NCBI GenBank assembly: GCA_017408915.1
Contig: JAFQTS010000084.1
Span: forward strand, 1 to 44,403
Reading direction: 5' to 3'
Length of the DNA: 44,403 bases
From: Oscillospiraceae bacterium
GTDB lineage: Bacteria; Bacillota; Clostridia; Oscillospirales; Oscillospiraceae
Shown here: positions 34,919 to 44,403 of the stretch, one piece after another
Layout: every line of letters starts with the position of its first letter
Numbering within the stretch: the stretch's first letter is position 1
Position numbers and translations under genes: made by a program
The notes under the pieces: model-generated
Told to the model about the DNA's origin: nothing
The model's input: the letters and a program-made list of their open reading frames with translations, nothing else
Database searches by the model: none

Positions 34919-35218
34919 TCAAAAGAGCAGATCGCCGCTCTTGTTGTCGAGACCGGGATGACCATCGAAACGAACGACACCCACAGCGGCCTTGCCTTCC
35001 ACGGCGTCCACGATCATGGCCGTGCCCTTGTGGCCGAAGCCGCCGCACAGCTCGATAGCGCCGTAGCCCTCGTTGACCAGTTCCTTTGCCACTGCCACTG
35101 CGTCAGCGTAGTCCTTCACGCCGATAGAGGTCAGCTCCACAGCGGGAGTAGCGTTCACTGCGCGATGTGCCTTGGAATCTGCGCCGCCTGCCAGGAACAA
35201 AAATGCTGCTTTCAACAT
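34919..35218 (-). CDS. DUF6506 family protein
   Basis: The 99-residue product starts at ATG 35218, with AAGGAG 9 bases upstream; an extension to 35254 has no ribosome site. The sequence begins MLKAAFLFLAGGADSKAHRA and continues VKDYADAVAVAKELVNEGYG and AIELCGGFGHKGTAMIVDAV, closing with VGVVRFDGHPG. These match the small single-domain DUF6506 proteins of Firmicutes, which have an alternating alpha/beta pattern. No function is known. It stands alone between two terminator or promoter regions. Confidence 0.82.
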   Translation of the reverse strand: MLKAAFLFLAGGADSKAHRAVNATPAVELTSIGVKDYADAVAVAKELVNEGYGAIELCGGFGHKGTAMIVDAVEGKAAVGVVRFDGHPGLDNKSGDLLF

Positions 35219-35377
35219 AGAAAACACTCCTTTATTTAATGGATTTTTGCGCATTTTCAGCTTGCTAACAGCATAGCACAGTCTGTGGCGAAGTTCAAGG
35301 GATTTTGAGATCGGAGAGGGAAAGAAGCTTTACCGTGGGGGAGGGGAGAGTGAATGGCATTTATATATGCGATCCAA

Positions 35378-35419
35378 AATTTAATTTTATCATTTTTATA
35401 AAAATGATAAAATTAAATT
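35378..35419. repeat. 42-bp perfect AT-rich palindrome
   Basis: Two 21-base arms with no spacer: the left arm AATTTAATTTTATCATTTTTA (35378-35398) is mirrored exactly to 35419, with the centre between 35398 and 35399. Only two G-C pairs per duplex (the C at 35391 and the G at 35406). Its end overlaps the -35 of the Fic/R-M promoter by two bases. Confidence 0.95.
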
Positions 35420-35446
35420 GACTTATGAGTTTGTTAGGCATATACT
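35418..35446 (+). promoter_or_regulatory. Promoter of Fic / type I R-M operon
   Basis: TTGACT (35418-35423), 17-bp spacer, TATACT (35441-35446). Start site near 35453. The leader has a small AGGCA (35449-35453)/TGCCT (35463-35467) hairpin followed by T's, and the same TGCC can instead pair with GGCA at 35473-35476. The spacer 35219-35377 shows no gene. Confidence 0.82.
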
Positions 35447-35490
35447 ATAGGCAAGGAAATACTGCCTTTTTCGGCAATTGAGGTATGACT

Positions 35491-36546
35491 ATGCGAAATT
35501 ATGATTTACAAAACAAATGGCAGAAGTTGCTTACACCTGACATCGTGGCATTGCTCACCCAAATCCACGAGTTTAAAGGTGAGCAGAATCTTTTCATTGA
35601 AGCCAACAAGGATACCTTAACGCAGCTGGTTGAGATCGCGAAGATTCAAAGCACGGAGGCATCCAATAAAATCGAGGGCATTTACACCTCTGATGAGCGG
35701 CTCAAAAAGCTCGTGTTGGATAAGACGATGCCTCGCACCAGAAACGAGCAGGAGATTGCAGGATATCGCGATGTTTTGGCAATGATCCACGAGAACTATG
35801 AATATATTCCTCTGCGTCCGACCATGCTTCTTCAGTTTCATCGCGACCTCTATAAGTTCAGCGGAAAGGCTATGGGCGGCAGCTATAAAAACTCCGACAA
35901 CATCATTGCAGAAACGGATGCAGACGGAAATCGTTTTGTTCGATTTCAGCCCGTACCTGCATGGGAAACTGCTGAGGCTATCGACTTGGCCTGCCAAGCC
36001 TATGACGAGGCGGTGCAGATGGGAGGAGACCCTCTGCTGCTGATTCCTATGTTTATTCTGGATTTTCTCTGTATTCACCCCTTCAACGATGGAAACGGGC
36101 GCTTGAGCCGTTTGCTGACCCTGTTGCTCCTTTACCGTAGCGGCTATATTGTCGGAAAATATATCAGTATCGAAAAAGTCATCGAAGAGAGTAAAGAAAC
36201 CTACTACGAGGCATTGCAGCAAAGTTCTGTGGGCTGGCATGAGCGCGAAAATGACTATGTCCCCTTCGTTTCTTACCTCCTTGGCGTGATCGTTGCCGCA
36301 TATCGCGAGTTTTCTTCCCGTGTGCAGCTGTTGATCACCAGCGGTATGTCCAAACCTGACCGCATCCGTGAGCTCATTAAGAATACCCTTGGCAAGGTAA
36401 CAAAAACGGAGATCTTGGCGCAGTGTCCCGATATCAGCCAAGCGACTGTGCAGCGCACACTGATCGACCTACAACAAAAAGAAGAAATCATCAAACTGGG
36501 CGGCGGACGCTATACCGCCTATACTTGGAACAGGGAGAGAGATTGA
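35491..36546 (+). CDS. Fic-family protein (class II, probable AMPylase) with C-terminal winged helix
   Basis: 351 residues from ATG 35491, seven bases after TGAGG; the ATG at 35485 is too close to it. The inhibitory helix motif SNKIEG (58-63, Ser-x-x-x-Glu-Gly) marks an autoinhibited class II Fic. The catalytic loop is complete, HPFNDGNGRLSR (196-207), so AMP transfer onto a target Tyr/Ser/Thr is chemically possible. A C-terminal winged helix (about 285-350; KVTKTEILAQCPDISQATVQ) could bind DNA, perhaps the nearby palindrome. It ends one base before hsdM and should be in the same operon. Confidence 0.93.
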   Translation: MRNYDLQNKWQKLLTPDIVALLTQIHEFKGEQNLFIEANKDTLTQLVEIAKIQSTEASNKIEGIYTSDERLKKLVLDKTMPRTRNEQEIAGYRDVLAMIHENYEYIPLRPTMLLQFHRDLYKFSGKAMGGSYKNSDNIIAETDADGNRFVRFQPVPAWETAEAIDLACQAYDEAVQMGGDPLLLIPMFILDFLCIHPFNDGNGRLSRLLTLLLLYRSGYIVGKYISIEKVIEESKETYYEALQQSSVGWHERENDYVPFVSYLLGVIVAAYREFSSRVQLLITSGMSKPDRIRELIKNTLGKVTKTEILAQCPDISQATVQRTLIDLQQKEEIIKLGGGRYTAYTWNRERD

Positions 36547-36547
36547 T

Positions 36548-38044
36548 ATGATTACAGGCGAACTTAAAAATAGAATCGACGGCTTGTGGAATATTTTCGC
36601 CGCAGGCGGCCTTGTGAATCCCTTGGATGTTATTGAGCAGGTCACCTATCTGATGTTCATCCGCGATTTGGATGATGTGGATAATCTCCGCGCAAAGGAG
36701 TGCGCCATGCTGGGTCTGCCCCATAAGAGCATCTTCGCCGATGAAGTGCAGGTGGGCGAGCGCACCATCCACGGCAGCCAACTGAAGTGGTCGGTGTTCC
36801 ACGATTTCCCCGCAGGAAAGATGTACTCTGTCATGCAGGAATGGGTGTTCCCCTTTATCAAGACCCTCCACGGCGATAAAAACAGCGCCTATTCCAAGTA
36901 CATGGACGATGCCATCTTTAAGCTGCCCACGCCGCTGCTGCTGAGCAAGGTGGTGGACTGCCTTGACGACATCTATACTCAGATGGCACAGCTACAGGAC
37001 ACCGACATTCGCGGAGATGTGTACGAGTACCTCCTCAGTAAAATCAGCCAGTCCGGTCGCAATGGTCAGTTCCGCACGCCCCGCCATATTATCCGCATGA
37101 TGGTGGAACTGATGCAGCCCCGTCCCGATGATGTGATCTGCGACCCCGCCTGTGGCACTTCTGGCTTCCTCGTCACCGCGGGTGAATATCTGAAGGAACA
37201 GCATAAGGAAGAAATCTTCTTCAATAAGCAGAAGAAGGATCACTACATGAACCACATGTTCTTCGGCTACGACATGGACAGAACCATGCTCCGTATCGGT
37301 GCCATGAACATGATGACCCACGGCGTGGATAACCCCTATATCGAGTACCGCGACAGCCTTTCTGACCAAAATACCGATAAGGAGAAGTACTCCCTCATCC
37401 TTGCCAATCCCCCCTTCAAGGGCAGCTTGGATGCCGATACTGTGTCGGCGGATCTGCTGAAAGTCTGCAAGACGAAAAAGACGGAACTGCTGTTCCTCGC
37501 CCTGTTCCTCCGTATGCTGAAGGTAGGCGGTCGCGGCGCGGTCATCGTCCCCGATGGCGTGCTGTTCGGCTCTTCCACCGCCCATAAGGCCATCCGTAAG
37601 GAACTGGTGGACGGTAACCGCCTCGAGGCCGTCATCTCCATGCCCAGCGGCGTGTTCAAGCCCTACGCAGGTGTGTCCACGGGTGTTCTCATCTTCACCA
37701 AGACAGGCCACGGCGGTACGGATAAGGTGTGGTTCTACGACATGACTGCCGACGGCCTCAGTTTGGACGATAAGCGTATCCCTGTGGCGGAGAACGACAT
37801 CCCCGATATTGTTGCCCGATTCCATAACTTGAGGGAGGAGGAAAACCGTCAGCGTACGGACAAGTCCTTCTTCGTGCCCAAGGCGGAGATTGTGGGCAAC
37901 GGCTATGACCTCAGTATCAATAAGTATAAAAAGGCGGAGTACAAGCCCGTGGAGTATCCCTCCACGGAGGAACTGATGGCGCAGCTCCACGAGTTGGAGA
38001 TGGAGATCACCGCAGGCTTGGCAGAGTTGGAGGAGATGCTGTGA
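36548..38044 (+). CDS. hsdM: Type I restriction-modification methyltransferase subunit
   Basis: The 498-residue product has the N-terminal HsdM helical domain (about 5-130) and an N6-adenine methyltransferase domain. Motif I is CDPACGTSGFLV (198-209), which binds S-adenosylmethionine, and motif IV is LANPPF (285-290), the catalytic NPPF that flips and methylates adenine. It forms M2S with HsdS and protects host DNA. The ribosome site overlaps the Fic stop region (AGGGAGAGATTG). Codons are GC-rich, unlike the genes that follow. Its stop overlaps the start of the HEPN-like gene. Confidence 0.96.
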   Translation: MITGELKNRIDGLWNIFAAGGLVNPLDVIEQVTYLMFIRDLDDVDNLRAKECAMLGLPHKSIFADEVQVGERTIHGSQLKWSVFHDFPAGKMYSVMQEWVFPFIKTLHGDKNSAYSKYMDDAIFKLPTPLLLSKVVDCLDDIYTQMAQLQDTDIRGDVYEYLLSKISQSGRNGQFRTPRHIIRMMVELMQPRPDDVICDPACGTSGFLVTAGEYLKEQHKEEIFFNKQKKDHYMNHMFFGYDMDRTMLRIGAMNMMTHGVDNPYIEYRDSLSDQNTDKEKYSLILANPPFKGSLDADTVSADLLKVCKTKKTELLFLALFLRMLKVGGRGAVIVPDGVLFGSSTAHKAIRKELVDGNRLEAVISMPSGVFKPYAGVSTGVLIFTKTGHGGTDKVWFYDMTADGLSLDDKRIPVAENDIPDIVARFHNLREEENRQRTDKSFFVPKAEIVGNGYDLSINKYKKAEYKPVEYPSTEELMAQLHELEMEITAGLAELEEML

Positions 38045-38535
38045 CAGGAAATCGCAGATTTGATAGCATGGAAATGTTTCGCCACGCTTGTGCTTTTGCG
38101 GATTGTGCAGACGTTTGTAGCCGCGAATCTTGGAGCACTGTCAATAGAACAAAATGGTACGGCACACCAGAAATTGTGAACAGGGCCTTTGCGTGTGAAA
38201 TCTATTTAAAAACGCTGTTATTTTACAATTGCATTGCTTATACGAAAGTGCATAGGCTTGCAGAGTTATATGCCCTTTTGCCTGAAAGATTTCGGGAGAC
38301 TATTGACCGTGAAACTTTTCGCCGTTTTGGGCGAACAAAAAATGCGTTTGGAATCAGCTATATTGAAAATATTTCTAATGCATTTTATGATTGGCGCTAT
38401 AGTTTTGAAAAGAGAAGTTTGCATTGTGAGGTTGGATACCTTGACCTATTATGCGATGTGTTGAGAGATTTGTGTTGCCGAGAACTTTACCAAATATCTT
38501 GGAAAGAATATGAAGCTACAAACAAAGAGAGGTGA
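38041..38535 (+). CDS. HEPN-like protein embedded between hsdM and hsdS
   Basis: 164 residues, all-helical by appearance. The segment IVNRAFACEIYLKTLLFYNC, then KVHRLAELYALLPERF and NAFYDWRYSFEKR resembles HEPN domains (helix with Glu-Ile-x-Leu-Lys, then His-x-Leu-x-x-Leu-Tyr, then Trp-Arg-Tyr). The classical R-x4-6-H RNase motif is not clear; RYSFEKRSLH has a longer spacing. GTG 38041 uses GGAGGAG inside hsdM and overlaps its stop by four bases. Base composition drops sharply here, as if the gene came with the following AT-rich insert. A toxin, RNase or adaptor role is possible but not shown. Confidence 0.72.
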   Translation: MTGNRRFDSMEMFRHACAFADCADVCSRESWSTVNRTKWYGTPEIVNRAFACEIYLKTLLFYNCIAYTKVHRLAELYALLPERFRETIDRETFRRFGRTKNAFGISYIENISNAFYDWRYSFEKRSLHCEVGYLDLLCDVLRDLCCRELYQISWKEYEATNKER

Positions 38536-38539
38536 GAAG

Positions 38540-39667
38540 ATGGCGAGATTGGGAGACATTTGTACTATTGTATCAGGTAGTACCCCTAAGAGTAATGTTT
38601 CCGAATACTGGGATGGTGATGTCAAATGGATAACACCAGCAGAACTTTCGGAAGAAAGCTATATCATTAACGATACTGTTCGTCATATTACAGAACTTGG
38701 AGTTGCCAAAACAGGGCTCAAGCCTTTTCCTAAAGGAACGGTGATTTTATCATCAAGAGCGCCTATAGGAAAAACTGCGATTGCAGGTTGTGAAATGTAC
38801 TGCAATCAAGGATTCAAAAACTTGATTTGTTCGGAAAAAATCAACCCTAGGTATTTATATTGGTTTTTAACATGTAATACGGAATATTTAAATTCATTGG
38901 GACGGGGAGCAACATTTAAAGAAATTTCTAAAGAAATTGTTGGAAACATTGAAATTCCGTTGCCAAAAAAAGAAGAGCAAATTGCAATTGCAGAAAAATT
39001 TGAGAAGCTCAATGACCTAATCTCCCTCCGCAAGCAGCAACTTGCAAGACTGGACGAATTGATTAAAGCGCGATTTGTGGAGATGTTTATAGGAAAAGGA
39101 TATCCGACAAAAACGGTGGATGAAGTATCGTTGGGAAAAGGTGAATATGGTGCTCAGTCAGCATCTGTTGAGTATGAGCCAACAAGACCTCGCTATGTAC
39201 GAATTACAGATATAAACGACGATGGAACGCTTAACAACGACGTAGTAGCATCCATCAATCCCGCTGATGACGAGCAGTATAAGTTAGAATACGGAGATTT
39301 TATGTTTGCACGTATGGGAGCTACGGTAGGTAAAACCTATGCTTTCATTGAAGGAAATCAGATTTTTGCAGGATACCTTATACGCTATAGATTGAATCAA
39401 AAACTTATCAATCCCCGTTATCTATTTTGGTATACGAGATTGGACGAGTATTGGAACTGGGTAAAGCTGAACCAAAGCGGCGCAGCACAACCAGGTATTA
39501 ATGCTAAAAAATACGGTTCTCTGCAAATACCACTTCCTCCAATTGAGAAACAAAACGGGTTTGCCGCCTTTGTCGAACAGACCGACAAATCAAAATTAGC
39601 CGTCCAGCAGAGCTTGGACAAGCTGGAGACACTAAAAAAAGCACTGATGCAACGGTTTTTCGGGTGA
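38540..39667 (+). CDS. hsdS: Type I restriction-modification specificity subunit
   Basis: The 375-residue product starts at ATG 38540, after AGGTGAG, which includes the preceding stop. Two target-recognition domains alternate with two conserved helical regions: TRD1 (about 1-130), CR1 (PLPKKEEQIAIAEKFEKLND, to about 180), TRD2 (about 185-325; VEYEPTRPRYVRITDINDDG) and CR2 (PLPPIEKQNGFAAFVEQTDK to the end). Each TRD reads half of a bipartite DNA site; the site cannot be predicted by reading. Length is near normal and no frameshift or inverted half-gene is visible. Strongly AT-rich compared with hsdM. Confidence 0.95.
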   Translation: MARLGDICTIVSGSTPKSNVSEYWDGDVKWITPAELSEESYIINDTVRHITELGVAKTGLKPFPKGTVILSSRAPIGKTAIAGCEMYCNQGFKNLICSEKINPRYLYWFLTCNTEYLNSLGRGATFKEISKEIVGNIEIPLPKKEEQIAIAEKFEKLNDLISLRKQQLARLDELIKARFVEMFIGKGYPTKTVDEVSLGKGEYGAQSASVEYEPTRPRYVRITDINDDGTLNNDVVASINPADDEQYKLEYGDFMFARMGATVGKTYAFIEGNQIFAGYLIRYRLNQKLINPRYLFWYTRLDEYWNWVKLNQSGAAQPGINAKKYGSLQIPLPPIEKQNGFAAFVEQTDKSKLAVQQSLDKLETLKKALMQRFFG

Positions 39668-39738
39668 AACCAGTACAAAAATGAACGGTTATAAGAATAC
39701 TCCGCTCGAAATAGTGCATGGAAGTGTACGCATTCTTG

Positions 39739-39747
39739 TGGTACAAT
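39739..39747 (+). promoter_or_regulatory. Possible internal extended -10 promoter
   Basis: TGG-TACAAT (39739-39747), an extended -10 without a recognisable -35, in the 107-bp gap after hsdS. It may give the two small membrane genes their own transcript. Confidence 0.45.
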
Positions 39748-39774
39748 GTAGAAAATGTGAGGAGAGATTATTAT

Positions 39775-40194
39775 ATGGAATGGAAGGATTTAGCTCCGTG
39801 GATCGCCATTGCAATTACCTTAGCGCTGTCTATTCTTGTTCCTTTGTTTACACAGATAGCAAACAATAGATTCCAACTAAAATTAGAAAAACAACGAGAA
39901 GAACAGGCTGAAAAAAAGCGAGAAGCTGACAGGAAAAGAATTGCGTTTGAGTCCTTTATTCAAAATGTTGGCGGTTGCATTGGATGTGCATCTGAAGTGG
40001 TTATGCAAGGAGCCATCGCAAGCATCAACAATTTGTACATCTATGCACCTAAAGAATGGTGGCCAACACTTGATAAGCTGTGTTGGAATATTCGCAAATA
40101 TGAATGGGATCACGCACTTTCACTCTTTCAAGATTTGAGTAAAAAGATTGCAAAGGCCATTGAAGAAAGCACTTTAATCAAGGAGGAAATATGA
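39775..40194 (+). CDS. Small membrane-anchored coiled-coil protein of unknown function
   Basis: 139 residues from ATG 39775 (GAGGAGAG 10 bases upstream). There is one membrane helix (about 9-27; WIAIAITLALSILVPLFTQI), then a charged coiled coil (KLEKQREEQAEKKREADRKR, about 37-57), then a soluble domain of about 75 residues with paired Cys and Trp (GGCIGCASEV; KEWWPTLDKLCWNI). No family is recognised. The stop overlaps the next start (ATGA), so the two products are made together and may form a membrane complex. AT-rich, between hsdS and hsdR. Confidence 0.75.
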   Translation: MEWKDLAPWIAIAITLALSILVPLFTQIANNRFQLKLEKQREEQAEKKREADRKRIAFESFIQNVGGCIGCASEVVMQGAIASINNLYIYAPKEWWPTLDKLCWNIRKYEWDHALSLFQDLSKKIAKAIEESTLIKEEI

Positions 40195-40664
40195 CTGAGA
40201 TTATTGCGGTTGCCATTTCGTTTGTCGCTCTTATCGTGAGTATTTTTGTAGGTTATAGACAAGTAAAAATCAGCCAACTGCAAGCTGATATGCAAGACAG
40301 AGTTGAATTGTATCTTTTGGCAGATACCATCACTTTGCGCGATGCAAAAAGAGAGACCGCAGATAAAGTGTATCCTGGGATGCTTATTAGAAATATAGGA
40401 AACAATGTCCTTTATCTGGAAAAATACACTTTCAATGGCAAGGAGTATCCTCTTGGCAAGGAGGTTCTCCCCCCAGTTTCCTCCTATGATGGAGTTCACT
40501 ACATTTATTTGCCAATAGATGGGACAACTCACGTGTCATTTTCAATATTCTTCTTCGATTGGAAAAATCGAGCATGGAAAACGGACGGATATGCTGATCT
40601 AAGAAAAGGCATTTGGGAAATAACTTATACGCCCTGTAAACAACGAAAAGAACCAAAGGGGTGA
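40191..40664 (+). CDS. Small membrane-anchored protein of unknown function
   Basis: 157 residues: a membrane helix at the very N-terminus (about 3-23; IIAVAISFVALIVSIFVGYR), a short helical link (QVKISQLQADMQDRVELYLL) and a beta-rich domain (PGMLIRNIGNNVLYLEKYTF; SFSIFFFDWKNRAWKTD). The pattern of a helix followed by a sandwich-like domain recalls membrane-tethered sensor or effector partners in some defence operons, but I recognise no family. It is translationally coupled to the previous gene. Its final GGGGTGA supplies the ribosome site for hsdR. Confidence 0.75.
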   Translation: MTEIIAVAISFVALIVSIFVGYRQVKISQLQADMQDRVELYLLADTITLRDAKRETADKVYPGMLIRNIGNNVLYLEKYTFNGKEYPLGKEVLPPVSSYDGVHYIYLPIDGTTHVSFSIFFFDWKNRAWKTDGYADLRKGIWEITYTPCKQRKEPKG

Positions 40665-40668
40665 CACC

Positions 40669-43600
40669 ATGACCAACTTTGACTTCTTAACCTCCGACCC
40701 ACAATTTCATTCTTTCTCCTCTGTGGCGGTGTCGGCGGAAAAGATCTATCATATCGACACCTCGGCATCGGTCATCAACTGCCGCCGCGCCATGGAATTT
40801 GCCGTCAAATGGATGTACTCTGTGGACGGCGACCTTGTCATGCCCTATCAAGACACGCTGGTGAGCCTCATGACCACCGAGGAGTTCCGCGACATCGTGG
40901 GACGTGACCTCTGGCTGCGTATGGACTTCATTCGCCGCGTGGGCAATAACGCCGCCCACACAGGCAAGAAGATCACCGAAGCGCAGGGCATGCTGTGTCT
41001 TGAAAACCTCTACATCTTCCTCGACTTTGTGGCCTGCTGTTATGGCAAAGAATACACCGCCGCGGCCTTTGACCCTGCGCTGGTGAGCAAGCACAGTGAG
41101 CCCGTGGTGGAGATTCGCCGCGACCCCGACTTTGACCGTGTGATGGCGGAGAATGCTGCCCTCAAGGAAGAGCTGACGGCGCGCCGTGCCCAGCAGCAGC
41201 AGAACTATGTGCCCAAGCCCTTGGATCTCAGCGAGTACAAGACGCGGAAGATCTACATCGACACCATGCTGCTGGATGCAGGATGGGTCGAGGGGAAGGA
41301 TTGGGTCAACGAGGTGGAATTGCAGGGCATGCCCAACCGCAGCGAGGTAGGCTTTGCCGACTATGTGCTGTATGACGATGCCCACAAGCCGCTGGCGGTG
41401 ATTGAGGCCAAGCGCACCTGCGTAGATGTCTCCAAGGGACGGCAGCAGGCGAAGCTGTACGCCGACATTTTGGAGAAGGAGTATGGCCGCAGGCCTGCGA
41501 TTTTCCTTTCCAACGGTTTTGAGACCCGCATTGATGACGGTGTGTATCCCGAGCGCAAGGTGGCGACCATCTATTCCAAACGTGACTTGGAGAAGATGTT
41601 CAACCTGCGCTCCATGCGGACGAGCCTCAAGCATGTGATGGTCAACAAGAACATTGCGGGGCGGTATTATCAAGACAGCGCCATCAAAGCGGTCTGCGAC
41701 AGCTTTGACCGCCGCAATCGCCACAAGGCGCTGTTAGTGATGGCTACGGGCTCGGGCAAGACGAGAACGGTTATTGCCCTGTGTGATGTGCTGTTGCAGC
41801 ACGGTTGGGTGAAGAACATTTTGTTCCTGGCAGACAGAAACGCGCTGGTGACGCAGGCGAAGCGCAGCTTTGTGAACCTGCTGCCCGATTTGTCGGTCAC
41901 CAATCTCTGCGAGGAGAAGGATAACTACAGCGCTCACTGCGTGTTTTCTACCTATCAGACCATGATGCACTGCATCGACGCGGTGAAGGATGAACAGGGA
42001 AAGCTGTTCACCTGTGGACACTTTGACTTGGTGATCTGTGACGAGGCGCACCGTTCCATCTATAACAAGTATCGGGATATTTTTAACTATTTTGATGCAC
42101 CTCTCGTGGGCTTGACCGCCACGCCTAAGGATGATATCGACAAGAACACCTATGAGATCTTCGAGTTGGAGAGCGGTGTGCCCACCTACGGCTATGAGCT
42201 GGCGCAAGCGGTCACCGATGGTTTTCTCGTGGACTATATGAGCGTAGAGACGAAACTGAAGTTTATCGAGCAGGGTATTGTCTACGACGAGCTTTCCGAA
42301 GAGGATAAAGAGGCATATGAGGATACCTTTGAGGATGAAAACGGCGAGTTGCCCGAGCGCATCAGTTCCTCGGCGCTGAATGAGTGGGTGTTCAATGAGG
42401 ATACCATCAAAGAGGTGCTGCACATTCTGATGACTAACGGCTTGCGCATTGACTATGGCGAAAAATTAGGTAAGACCATCATTTTTGCGAAGAACCACAA
42501 CCACGCCGAGAAGATTTTTGAGATATTCAATCGCGAGTATCCTTATTTGGTGGGCTATGCTAAGGTTATCGATAACCAAATGACATATGCGCAGAGCGCG
42601 ATCGACGAGTTCTCCGATCCCAAGAAACTGCCGCAGATTGCTATTTCCGTTGATATGCTGGATACGGGCATCGATGTGCCCGAAGTGCTGAATCTGGTGT
42701 TTTTCAAGAAGGTGATGAGCAAGGCGAAGTTCTGGCAGATGATTGGTCGCGGCACACGTCTTTGTGAGGGACTTATCGATGGTGTGGATAAGAGCAAGTT
42801 CTACATCTTCGACTTCTGTGGTAACTTTGAGTTCTTCCGTATGGGAGGGAAGGGAAAGTCGACCGAACAAATTGCGCTGCAGGGAGCTCTGTTCAATCTG
42901 AAGGCGCAGATTGTGTACAAGCTGCAGGATATTGAGTTCCAAACGAAGGAACTGACTGCCTTCCGAGAAGAACTTGTTGGTGACATGGTGCGCAAGGTGC
43001 GAGAGTTGAATAAGGATAATTTCTCCGTTCGACAGCATCTTAAGTATGTGGAGCTATATGCTGACCCCGACAACTATACGGTACTGAGTTATGAGGACAC
43101 GCTGATCATCAAGAGCGAATTGGTGCCGTTGATTACGCCTGATGAAGACGATCCCAAGGCGATGCGATTTGATGCATTAATGTACGGAATCGAGTTGGCG
43201 TATTTGATGGGAAAAAAGTATACCCGTGCCAGAAGTGACTTGTATAAGAAGGTGAAGGGTATTGCCGGAGTTGCCAACATCCCCGAAATCAAAGCCCAAA
43301 CGGAATTGATTTATAAAATCCTGCACACGGATTACTTAGACAGCGCCGGAATTAACGAGTTTGAGCATATTCGCGAGAACTTGCGTAATCTCATCAAATA
43401 TATTCCAAATAATACAGTTCGGTACATTACCAATTTCGATGATGAGATTCTGTCTATGGATTGGCATGAAGCTGAGCTCGAAAACGATGATCTTAAGAAC
43501 TACAAAGCAAAAGCGGAATTCTATGTGCGTCAGCATCAAAATGAAGTGGTTATTGCTAAGCTTAGAAATAACGAGCAGTTGACACATGATGATGTGCTTG

Positions 43601-43953
43601 CTTTGGAGAGAATTCTCTGGAGTGAAGTTGGTACGAAAGAGGATTATGAGGCAGAGATCGGTTCGAAACCTTTAGGTGAGTTTGTGCGTGAAATTGTGGG
43701 CTTAGACATGAAGGCGGCTAAGGAAGCGTTTTCTGCCTATCTTGACGAAGCCGTATTGGATAGCCGACAGATTTATTTCGTCAATCAAATCGTGGAATAT
43801 ATCGTACAAAACGGATTGATGAAAGACCTTTCTGTTTTGCAAGAGTCCCCGTTCACAGACAAGGGAAGTGTTGTTGAGATATTTACTGATACAAGCCTCT
43901 GGATGGGAATTCGCAAGGTTATCGAGCGAGTGAATGCTAACGCTATTGCTTAA
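40669..43953 (+). CDS. hsdR: Type I restriction endonuclease subunit R
   Basis: 1094 residues. Order: DUF4145/HEPN-like N-terminal domain (about 10-125; FIRRVGNNAAHTGKKIT), a coiled link, PD-(D/E)XK nuclease with Asp231, Glu246 and Lys248 (GFADYVL...LAVIEAKRT), and an SF2 DEAD-type translocase: Walker A ATGSGKTRT (359-367), DEAH (458-461), LTATP (482-486) and motif VI QMIGRGTRLC. The EcoEI-type C-terminal region follows. It translocates DNA by ATP hydrolysis and cuts far from the unmethylated site. The start follows AAAGGGGTGA. Codon use turns more AT-rich in roughly the last third. Confidence 0.96.
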   Translation: MTNFDFLTSDPQFHSFSSVAVSAEKIYHIDTSASVINCRRAMEFAVKWMYSVDGDLVMPYQDTLVSLMTTEEFRDIVGRDLWLRMDFIRRVGNNAAHTGKKITEAQGMLCLENLYIFLDFVACCYGKEYTAAAFDPALVSKHSEPVVEIRRDPDFDRVMAENAALKEELTARRAQQQQNYVPKPLDLSEYKTRKIYIDTMLLDAGWVEGKDWVNEVELQGMPNRSEVGFADYVLYDDAHKPLAVIEAKRTCVDVSKGRQQAKLYADILEKEYGRRPAIFLSNGFETRIDDGVYPERKVATIYSKRDLEKMFNLRSMRTSLKHVMVNKNIAGRYYQDSAIKAVCDSFDRRNRHKALLVMATGSGKTRTVIALCDVLLQHGWVKNILFLADRNALVTQAKRSFVNLLPDLSVTNLCEEKDNYSAHCVFSTYQTMMHCIDAVKDEQGKLFTCGHFDLVICDEAHRSIYNKYRDIFNYFDAPLVGLTATPKDDIDKNTYEIFELESGVPTYGYELAQAVTDGFLVDYMSVETKLKFIEQGIVYDELSEEDKEAYEDTFEDENGELPERISSSALNEWVFNEDTIKEVLHILMTNGLRIDYGEKLGKTIIFAKNHNHAEKIFEIFNREYPYLVGYAKVIDNQMTYAQSAIDEFSDPKKLPQIAISVDMLDTGIDVPEVLNLVFFKKVMSKAKFWQMIGRGTRLCEGLIDGVDKSKFYIFDFCGNFEFFRMGGKGKSTEQIALQGALFNLKAQIVYKLQDIEFQTKELTAFREELVGDMVRKVRELNKDNFSVRQHLKYVELYADPDNYTVLSYEDTLIIKSELVPLITPDEDDPKAMRFDALMYGIELAYLMGKKYTRARSDLYKKVKGIAGVANIPEIKAQTELIYKILHTDYLDSAGINEFEHIRENLRNLIKYIPNNTVRYITNFDDEILSMDWHEAELENDDLKNYKAKAEFYVRQHQNEVVIAKLRNNEQLTHDDVLALERILWSEVGTKEDYEAEIGSKPLGEFVREIVGLDMKAAKEAFSAYLDEAVLDSRQIYFVNQIVEYIVQNGLMKDLSVLQESPFTDKGSVVEIFTDTSLWMGIRKVIERVNANAIA

Positions 43954-43962
43954 CTGAAAAGT

Positions 43963-44000
43963 AAAAGTACGGTAGACCGAAGTCGGTCTACCGTACTTTT
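43963..44000 (+). terminator. Terminator of R-M operon
   Basis: AAAAGTACGGTAGACCGA (43963-43980) and TCGGTCTACCGTACTTTT (43983-44000), a nearly loop-free 18-bp inverted repeat ten bases after the hsdR stop. Confidence 0.88.
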
Positions 44001-44120: not shown

Positions 44121-44196
<76 letters not shown>

Positions 44197-44198
44197 AG

Positions 44199-44240
44199 AA
44201 AACACCGTGAAACCAAGGGTTTCGCGGTGTTTCTTTTTTT
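44199..44240 (+). terminator. Terminator of tRNA-Ala
   Basis: AAAACACCGTGAAACC (44199-44214) and GGTTTCGCGGTGTTT (44218-44232) pair almost completely with one wobble, then CTTTTTTT. Confidence 0.9.
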
Positions 44241-44252
44241 GGTTTTTCGGCC

Positions 44253-44274
44253 GTGTTGAATTTGTGTTGAATTA
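44253..44274. repeat. 11-bp tandem repeat
   Basis: GTGTTGAATTT (44253-44263) followed directly by GTGTTGAATTA (44264-44274). Short tandem repeats next to a tRNA 3' end can be integrase arm-type sites; that is only a suggestion. No gene is supported from 44241 to the window end. Confidence 0.6.
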
Positions 44275-44336
44275 GGATGAATGAGTTTAACGAACCATAA
44301 GATCAGCATTGCGAATGCCTAAACTTATTTGCAGAA

Positions 44337-44365
44337 AAGTGGGATCAAACCGCTGATCTCTTGAA
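44337..44365 (-). repeat. Degenerate inverted copy of tRNA-Ala 3' half
   Basis: The reverse complement of 44337-44365 matches tRNA-Ala 44158-44186 over 29 bases with three differences, all transitions (G to A, C to T, G to A). A second T-arm-like AGTGGGATCGAACCG occurs at 44389-44403, 50 bases after AGTGGGATCAAACCG at 44339-44353. It looks like a tRNA-derived remnant, not a functional tRNA. Confidence 0.75.
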
Positions 44366-44403
44366 GGGTAGAAGACCTACCTCGGCGAAGTGGGATCGAA
44401 CCG

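What the first reader, a model, noticed from the sequence alone, without database searches (positions are those of the whole stretch)
35378..43953. Type I R-M locus carrying Fic, a HEPN-like protein and a coupled two-membrane-protein module
The order is fic - hsdM - HEPN-like - hsdS - membrane protein with coiled coil - membrane protein with beta-rich domain - hsdR, all on one strand with overlaps (hsdM/HEPN GTGA, the membrane pair ATGA) or shared stop/ribosome sites. Seen directly: an intact Fic motif with a class II inhibitory helix, complete HsdM and HsdR active sites, and single N-terminal membrane helices in both unknowns. Known: R-M loci often collect abortive-infection cargo such as Fic and HEPN proteins. 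Inference: the extra genes could be a back-up toxin or membrane-effector layer triggered when restriction fails or methylation is lost.
Basis: partly seen in the sequence, partly recalled or inferred. Interest (0 to 1): 0.82.

Follow-up and report, generated by a model that had tools for sequence, protein, structure and literature searches.

The report
Fic-led restriction operon with swappable cargo
This gut bacterium carries a DNA-cutting defence operon whose first gene looks like its own off-switch, and whose gaps hold exchangeable small genes, here an RNA-enzyme-like protein and two membrane proteins, that differ in nearly every relative.

Summary
In detail: fic, hsdM, HEPN-like, hsdS, two membrane-protein genes and hsdR lie on one strand with the stated overlaps. 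The "one system" reading needs revision. I compared 80 loci with 78-92% identical HsdM. Fic is chassis: at least 55% identical Fic lies just upstream of hsdM in 62 of 80. The HEPN and membrane genes are cassettes: of 61 loci complete from hsdM to hsdR, 25 carry cargo between hsdM and hsdS, 57 between hsdS and hsdR, 2 none; over all 80 loci, 162 cargo ORFs form 95 clusters. Membrane protein 2 recurs once, without protein 1; protein 1 recurs beside AbiH. New here: the operon starts with a perfect 42-bp palindrome overlapping a promoter. Its pattern is kept in 49 of 59 Fic-led loci, 0 of 17 lacking this Fic, 0 of 1180 shuffles. One of its bases tracks one Fic recognition-helix residue in 45 of 45 scorable loci, though phylogeny leaves few independent changes. 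Best reading: a Fic-HTH autorepressor runs a type I R-M operon with interchangeable, probably anti-phage, cargo. Embedded cargo and Fic-HTH autorepression are each known; I found the combination in no listing searched.

The parts
35378..35419 (.). Perfect 42-bp palindrome, proposed Fic operator
   Evidence: Inverted repeat, 21-nt arms, 100%, no spacer; pattern (AATT in both halves, 18-19 bp core) upstream of Fic in 49 of 59 regions, 0 of 17 loci without this Fic, 0 of 1180 shuffles; one exact site in own assembly
35418..35446 (+). Promoter TTGACT-17-TATACT overlapping the palindrome end
   Evidence: similar promoter after the core in 46 of 53 operators
35485..36546 (+). fic: class II Fic protein with C-terminal winged-HTH; chassis gene, proposed autorepressor
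   Evidence: Pfam Fic 6.8e-13, HTH models only under cut-off; closest PDB 8uqu 1.7e-81, also 3eqx 'Fic domain containing transcriptional regulator'
36548..38044 (+). hsdM, type I methyltransferase
   Evidence: Pfam N6_Mtase 4.2e-64, HsdM_N 2e-10
38041..38535 (+). Slot 1 cargo: HEPN-like protein without a conserved RX4-6H RNase motif
   Evidence: relatives in slot 1 of L018, L042, L090, L172
38540..39667 (+). hsdS, specificity subunit (frame open from 38510)
   Evidence: Pfam Methylase_S 4.2e-41; start region ATGGCGAGATTGGG shared with other loci
39775..40194 (+). Slot 2 cargo: membrane protein 1 (TM + long helix + helical bundle)
   Evidence: Model pLDDT 86.7; 45% homologue in slot 2 of L173
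40191..40664 (+). Slot 2 cargo: membrane protein 2 (TM + beta-rich domain)
   Evidence: Model pLDDT 62; 52% homologue in slot 2 of L063
40669..43953 (+). hsdR with N-terminal DUF4145 (HEPN-clan) domain
   Evidence: Pfam ResIII 4e-37, EcoEI_R_C 1.6e-16, DUF4145 3.4e-11
43963..44000 (.). Terminator-like inverted repeat after hsdR
   Evidence: (listed for the - strand; terminator count not above shuffles)

Best explanation
A type I R-M operon of gut Clostridia with a fixed chassis (operator, fic, hsdM, hsdS ends, hsdR) and two insertion slots. Fic-HTH binds its own palindrome as a dimer over the -35 box and represses the whole operon, so R-M and cargo are made together at a set level; loss of repression (by infection, or by AMPylation-linked change in Fic) would raise all of them. 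The HEPN-like protein (slot 1) and the two membrane proteins (slot 2) are exchangeable cassettes, most likely anti-phage effectors or accessory proteins. Shown: gene order, sharp chassis/cargo borders, operator conservation and its link to Fic. Inferred: dimer binding, repression, derepression, effector function of this cargo.
For: Fic >=55% id upstream of hsdM in 62 of 80. Mean number of the 80 loci whose DNA covers: hsdM 77.9, fic 56.4, hsdR 54.2, against HEPN 0.5, membrane 1 0.0, membrane 2 1.1. Slot 1 filled 25 of 61, slot 2 57 of 61, none 2 of 61; in these, 141 non-hsd ORFs >=100 aa on the same strand, 5 opposite. First cargo overlaps the hsdM stop by 1-4 nt in 11 of 25 filled slots, hsdS does so in 20 of 36 empty ones. 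Operator 49 of 59 vs 0 of 17, shuffles 0 of 1180; helix residue Thr with G 12 of 12, other residue with A 33 of 33. Different Fic+HTH proteins lead the same hsdM in L022, L035 and, with a weak HTH, L113. Precedents CccR and RptR.
Against: No binding or expression data. Fic HTH is under Pfam cut-off. Thr/G needs 3 changes on the best tree, but one origin is not rejected (p-AU 0.063; 0.129 without L062) and starred branches leave one independent pair, too few for the sign test. 10 of 59 regions miss the strict operator pattern, 6 the loose one; the loose one also hits 36 of 1180 shuffles and, at 400 bp, 1 of 17 loci without this Fic (L086). The other lead Fic proteins show no such operator: a terminator-like hairpin in L022 and L035, nothing in L113. 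Fic motif not found in 3 of 60 Fic proteins (L023, L047, L061). Functions of the HEPN-like and membrane proteins rest on position alone; 11 of 13 readable non-chassis type I loci also hold cargo, so slots are not special to Fic-led loci.
Confidence: 0.7

Rival explanations
1. PrrC-like guard: the HEPN-like protein and/or the membrane pair are held inactive by the HsdMSR complex and released as toxins when a phage inhibits restriction or methylation fails.
For: PrrC in EcoprrI is a HEPN-bearing cargo held by the R-M complex (PMC3710099, PMC12707154, passages). The HEPN-like gene is coupled to hsdM by overlap and relatives sit in slot 1 of four other Fic-led loci.
Against: This HEPN family shows no conserved RX4-6H; one relative sits after an hsdR in L174 and another in L175 with no hsd gene found in 13 kb, so no fixed partner; cargo turns over while HsdM stays 78-92% identical.
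Confidence: 0.25
2. Fic is itself the toxin (Sofic-like AMPylator) and R-M plus cargo are separate defences; the palindrome is bound by some other host factor.
For: Fic motif in 57 of 60 and inhibitory motif in 57 of 60 Fic proteins; PADLOC SoFic hit 1.3e-34; Sofic toxicity in print (PMC12249575, passages).
Against: NCBIfam SoFic model 44.2 bits against cut-off 550; the palindrome tracks Fic presence (49 of 59 vs 0 of 17) and a Fic helix residue. Toxin and repressor roles can coexist, as in CccR.
Confidence: 0.3
3. The palindrome is a terminator or RNA hairpin of an upstream gene, not an operator.
For: Long inverted repeats, perfect in the window.
Against: A promoter follows the core in 46 of 53, 10-14 bp past it in 41 of these. 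The nearest longer ORF upstream (34919-35254) is on the other strand and starts 124 bp away. AATT half-sites at fixed 18-19 bp core spacing are kept.
Confidence: 0.05

Closest known systems
Campylobacter jejuni type I hsd loci with rlo/mlo genes (PMC5183652, passages; Miller 2005 seen only as its reference)
   Same: Intervening ORFs between hsdR-hsdS and hsdS-hsdM
   Different: Different phylum; no Fic lead gene or palindromic operator in the passages seen
RRDM island, RptR + DarTG2 in a type I system (PMC12255303, passages)
   Same: First gene is an autorepressor; toxin system embedded between hsdS and hsdR
   Different: Repressor is a small alpha-helical protein binding 6-bp palindromes; here Fic-HTH and a ~42-bp palindrome; cargo differs
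CccR Fic-HTH protein (PMC9755527, abstract and other passages)
   Same: Fic plus C-terminal HTH, represses its own promoter through a palindrome near -35/-10
   Different: CccR is a secreted effector beside a type VI effector cluster, not an R-M lead gene; sequences not compared here
EcoprrI/PrrC (PMC3874165, PMC12707154, PMC3710099, passages)
   Same: Effector gene embedded in a type I operon
   Different: PrrC joins an ABC-type NTPase to a HEPN anticodon nuclease; no such protein in the window slots

Membership tests
Type I restriction-modification | HsdM, HsdS, HsdR in one operon with their core domains | tested here: met
   Pfam above cut-off for all three
Type I loci with embedded cargo (rlo/mlo, PrrC, RRDM) | Unrelated genes between hsd genes on the same strand | tested here: met
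Fic-HTH autorepressors (CccR-like) | Intact Fic motif and class II inhibitory motif | tested here: met
   Window protein
Fic-HTH autorepressors (CccR-like) | C-terminal HTH domain | tested here: inconclusive
   Several HTH models at residues 288-352, all under cut-off
Fic-HTH autorepressors (CccR-like) | Palindrome at own promoter | tested here: met
Fic-HTH autorepressors (CccR-like) | Protein binds it and represses | not testable with these tools
   Needs footprinting and reporter assays
HEPN RNase | Conserved RX4-6H motif | tested here: not met
   Invariant E53, K57, H71, R119, Y120, E123 instead in 11 aligned sequences
HEPN superfamily (PF05168) | Pfam cut-off | tested here: not met
   14.8 bits against 22 for the window protein; best family member 3.9e-6
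SoFic (NF046030) | NCBIfam cut-off 550 bits | tested here: not met
   44.2 bits
DUF4145 domain in HsdR | Pfam cut-off 23.1 bits | tested here: met
   43.5 bits

The most novel reading that the evidence does not exclude
The Fic protein is a dual switch: bound to the operator it silences a mixed restriction-plus-effector operon, and infection or loss of repression both turns on the operon and frees Fic to AMPylate a target, making an enzyme-repressor the common trigger for whatever cargo the chassis holds. The recurrence of different Fic+HTH architectures in the lead position would then reflect need for both activities.
Probability: 0.25. Interest if true: 0.8.

Novelty: new variant of a known kind. 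Interest (0 to 1): 0.55.

Why it matters
It gives a compact, testable model of how a chromosomal R-M operon of gut Clostridia could control a rotating set of anti-phage genes, with a predicted operator and a predicted specificity residue in Fic. The slots are also a place to look for uncharacterised defence genes: 68 of 95 cargo clusters have a single member in the set.

Tried and rejected

The promoter palindromes of solitary Fic homologues were not tested against shuffles. The claim that the combination is not in print rests on searches in a CC-licensed library, listings only.

Full report
What is there. The operon 35378-44000 holds fic, hsdM, a HEPN-like gene, hsdS, two small membrane-protein genes and hsdR, all on the + strand. 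Fic, HsdM, HsdS and HsdR pass Pfam cut-offs; HsdR also has an N-terminal DUF4145 domain, a HEPN-superfamily domain that PMC3710099 (passages) reports fused to restriction and helicase modules. The three small proteins have no match over cut-off in Pfam or NCBIfam, none at E <= 1 in PADLOC, and in PHROGs only E >= 0.16.

Comparison set. One scan of GTDB genomes with HsdM returned the best 80 loci, 78-92% identical over the best segment. ORFs were called by script and labelled by BLAST against the window proteins. Fic at 55% identity or more lies within two ORFs upstream of hsdM in 62 of 80; one of the 18 misses (L089) is cut at the contig end. Sixty-one loci run from hsdM to hsdR. Counting same-strand ORFs of 80 aa or more, slot 1 (hsdM-hsdS) is filled in 25, slot 2 (hsdS-hsdR) in 57, both in 23, none in 2 (L038, L076). 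Across all 80 loci 162 cargo ORFs fall into 95 clusters, 68 of one member.

Borders. BLASTN of the window against the 80 loci covers hsdM in 77.9 loci on average, fic in 56.4, hsdR in 54.2; it covers the HEPN gene in 0.5, membrane gene 1 in 0.0, membrane gene 2 in 1.1, hsdS in 6.3 (mainly its conserved stretches near 39040-39080 and 39560-39660), the operator/promoter stretch in 10.5 and the outer flanks in about none. The change is abrupt at the hsdM stop, the hsdS end and the hsdR start. Where slot 1 is empty hsdS overlaps the hsdM stop by 1-4 nt in 20 of 36 loci; where it is filled the first cargo ORF does so in 11 of 25 (longest-ORF starts). The nearest relative L013 (HsdM 91%, Fic 83%, HsdR 83%) has none of the window's cargo.

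Cargo content. Representatives of 89 clusters (100 aa or longer; 6 shorter left out) were scanned. Named hits include AbiH, Schlafen AlbA_2, RhuM, Abi_alpha, TIR of CAP12 type, SieB, PIN, Mrr, HNH, DUF3990 and DUF4869, and PADLOC matches to SpbK, LmuB and candidate (PDC) families (only the first 25 families of each scan are shown). HEPN relatives: slot 1 in L018, L042, L090 (found through HsdM, so biased), with a second copy in slot 2 of L090. Membrane protein 2 has one relative, in slot 2 of L063 directly after hsdS, with no membrane protein 1. The best relative of membrane protein 1 is in slot 2 of the Fic-led locus L173, followed by AbiH (6.8e-32). So both membrane genes keep their slot but not each other.

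Lead gene and operator. A perfect 42-bp palindrome (35378-35419) overlaps the -35 box of TTGACT-17-TATACT. I first scanned 58 other Fic-led loci (48 of 58) and then, like for like, 59 upstream regions including the window. A pattern with AATT in both halves and an 18-19 bp TCAT/ATGA core is in 49 of 59, in 0 of 17 loci without this Fic (200 or 400 bp upstream of hsdM), in 0 of 6 regions upstream of their other lead ORFs, and in 0 of 1180 single-base shuffles. A looser test gives 53 of 59, but also 1 of 17 at 400 bp (L086), 1 of 6 lead ORFs (L034) and 36 of 1180 shuffles. TCA/TGA is fixed by the search pattern and the core may range from 14 to 24 bp; it was 18 (39), 19 (13) or 14 (1, probably a wrong pick in L074), and a promoter follows in 46 of 53, 10-14 bp past the core in 41. 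The exact pattern occurs at one site in the window's own, incomplete assembly, so Fic may control only this operon. In 117 genomes of the order, Fic homologues at 58-75% have hsdM next to them, directly or after one ORF, in 8 of 10 (not L101, L102); 8 homologues at 41-49% have none within the fetched stretch. Some of the latter carry other inverted repeats at the promoter, as TTCCCTTA/TAAGGGAA in L107 and L108 (not tested against shuffles).

Covariation. In the Fic recognition-helix stretch (window CPDISQATVQR, residue 320), Thr goes with G at one half-site position in 12 of 12 loci and any other residue with A in 33 of 33 (Fisher 3.5e-11, not corrected for kinship). Eight operators with unlike halves or other bases were dropped (L018, L019, L020, L021, L031, L036, L043, L074) and six regions had no operator; counted by half-sites, Thr has G 24 of 24, the rest A 72, G 4, C 3, T 3. 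On a tree of the Fic part without the HTH, Thr needs three changes, but a single origin is not rejected (p-AU 0.063, or 0.129 without L062), so independence is not proven. At three loci without this Fic, other Fic proteins lead the same hsdM: HTH_17-Fic in L022 and L035, and in L113 a 26% identical Fic with an HTH match under cut-off; L032 has a Cro/CI HTH. A lead DNA-binding gene is thus recurrent, though the Fic proteins of L022, L035 and L113 show no such palindrome.

Mechanism. Shown: order, overlaps, borders, conservation, operator-Fic link. Established elsewhere: a Fic-HTH protein (CccR) represses its own promoter through a palindrome near -35/-10 (PMC9755527, passages), and a type I island with embedded DarTG2 is run by the first-gene repressor RptR (PMC12255303, passages). 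Inferred: the window Fic does the same here and cargo is expressed with R-M. The HEPN-like family lacks a conserved RX4-6H RNase motif, so I expect a binding or adaptor role rather than a canonical RNase. The membrane proteins could form a membrane-anchored accessory or effector, but the evidence is position only.

Novelty. Cargo inside type I loci is long known (PMC5183652, PMC3874165, PMC12707154, passages) and is also present in 11 of 13 other type I loci of this order. I found no paper on a Fic-led type I operon with this operator in the listings. I file it as a new variant of a known kind.

Noticed in passing
L015, L028, L029, L052, L055, L065, L078, L090 (slot 2): A second hsdS in the same operon (8 of 61 complete loci), each with a 322-335 aa gene of one cluster whose scanned set holds a phage-integrase match, suggesting invertible specificity.
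   Followed up: partly
Slot 1 of 13 loci, e.g. L016:1681-2157, L017:11753-12301: Cluster of small proteins, 13 of 13 with a predicted membrane helix, 11 of 13 with an N-terminal IDYD/INYDKLA stretch; L017's has no Pfam match over cut-off.
   Followed up: partly
L172:9209-10075 (-): A 288-aa cargo gene between fic and hsdM, a third occasional slot.
   Followed up: no
window 44121-44403: tRNA-Ala followed by inverted partial tRNA-like repeats at the contig end.
   Followed up: no
L174: Another type I locus with a HEPN gene after hsdR, lying between two large genes that look like serine recombinases (family recalled, not tested).
   Followed up: no
L106, L107, L108: Solitary Fic homologues (45%) with promoter inverted repeats built on TTCCCTT, which may mean wider Fic autoregulation (not tested against shuffles).
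   Followed up: partly
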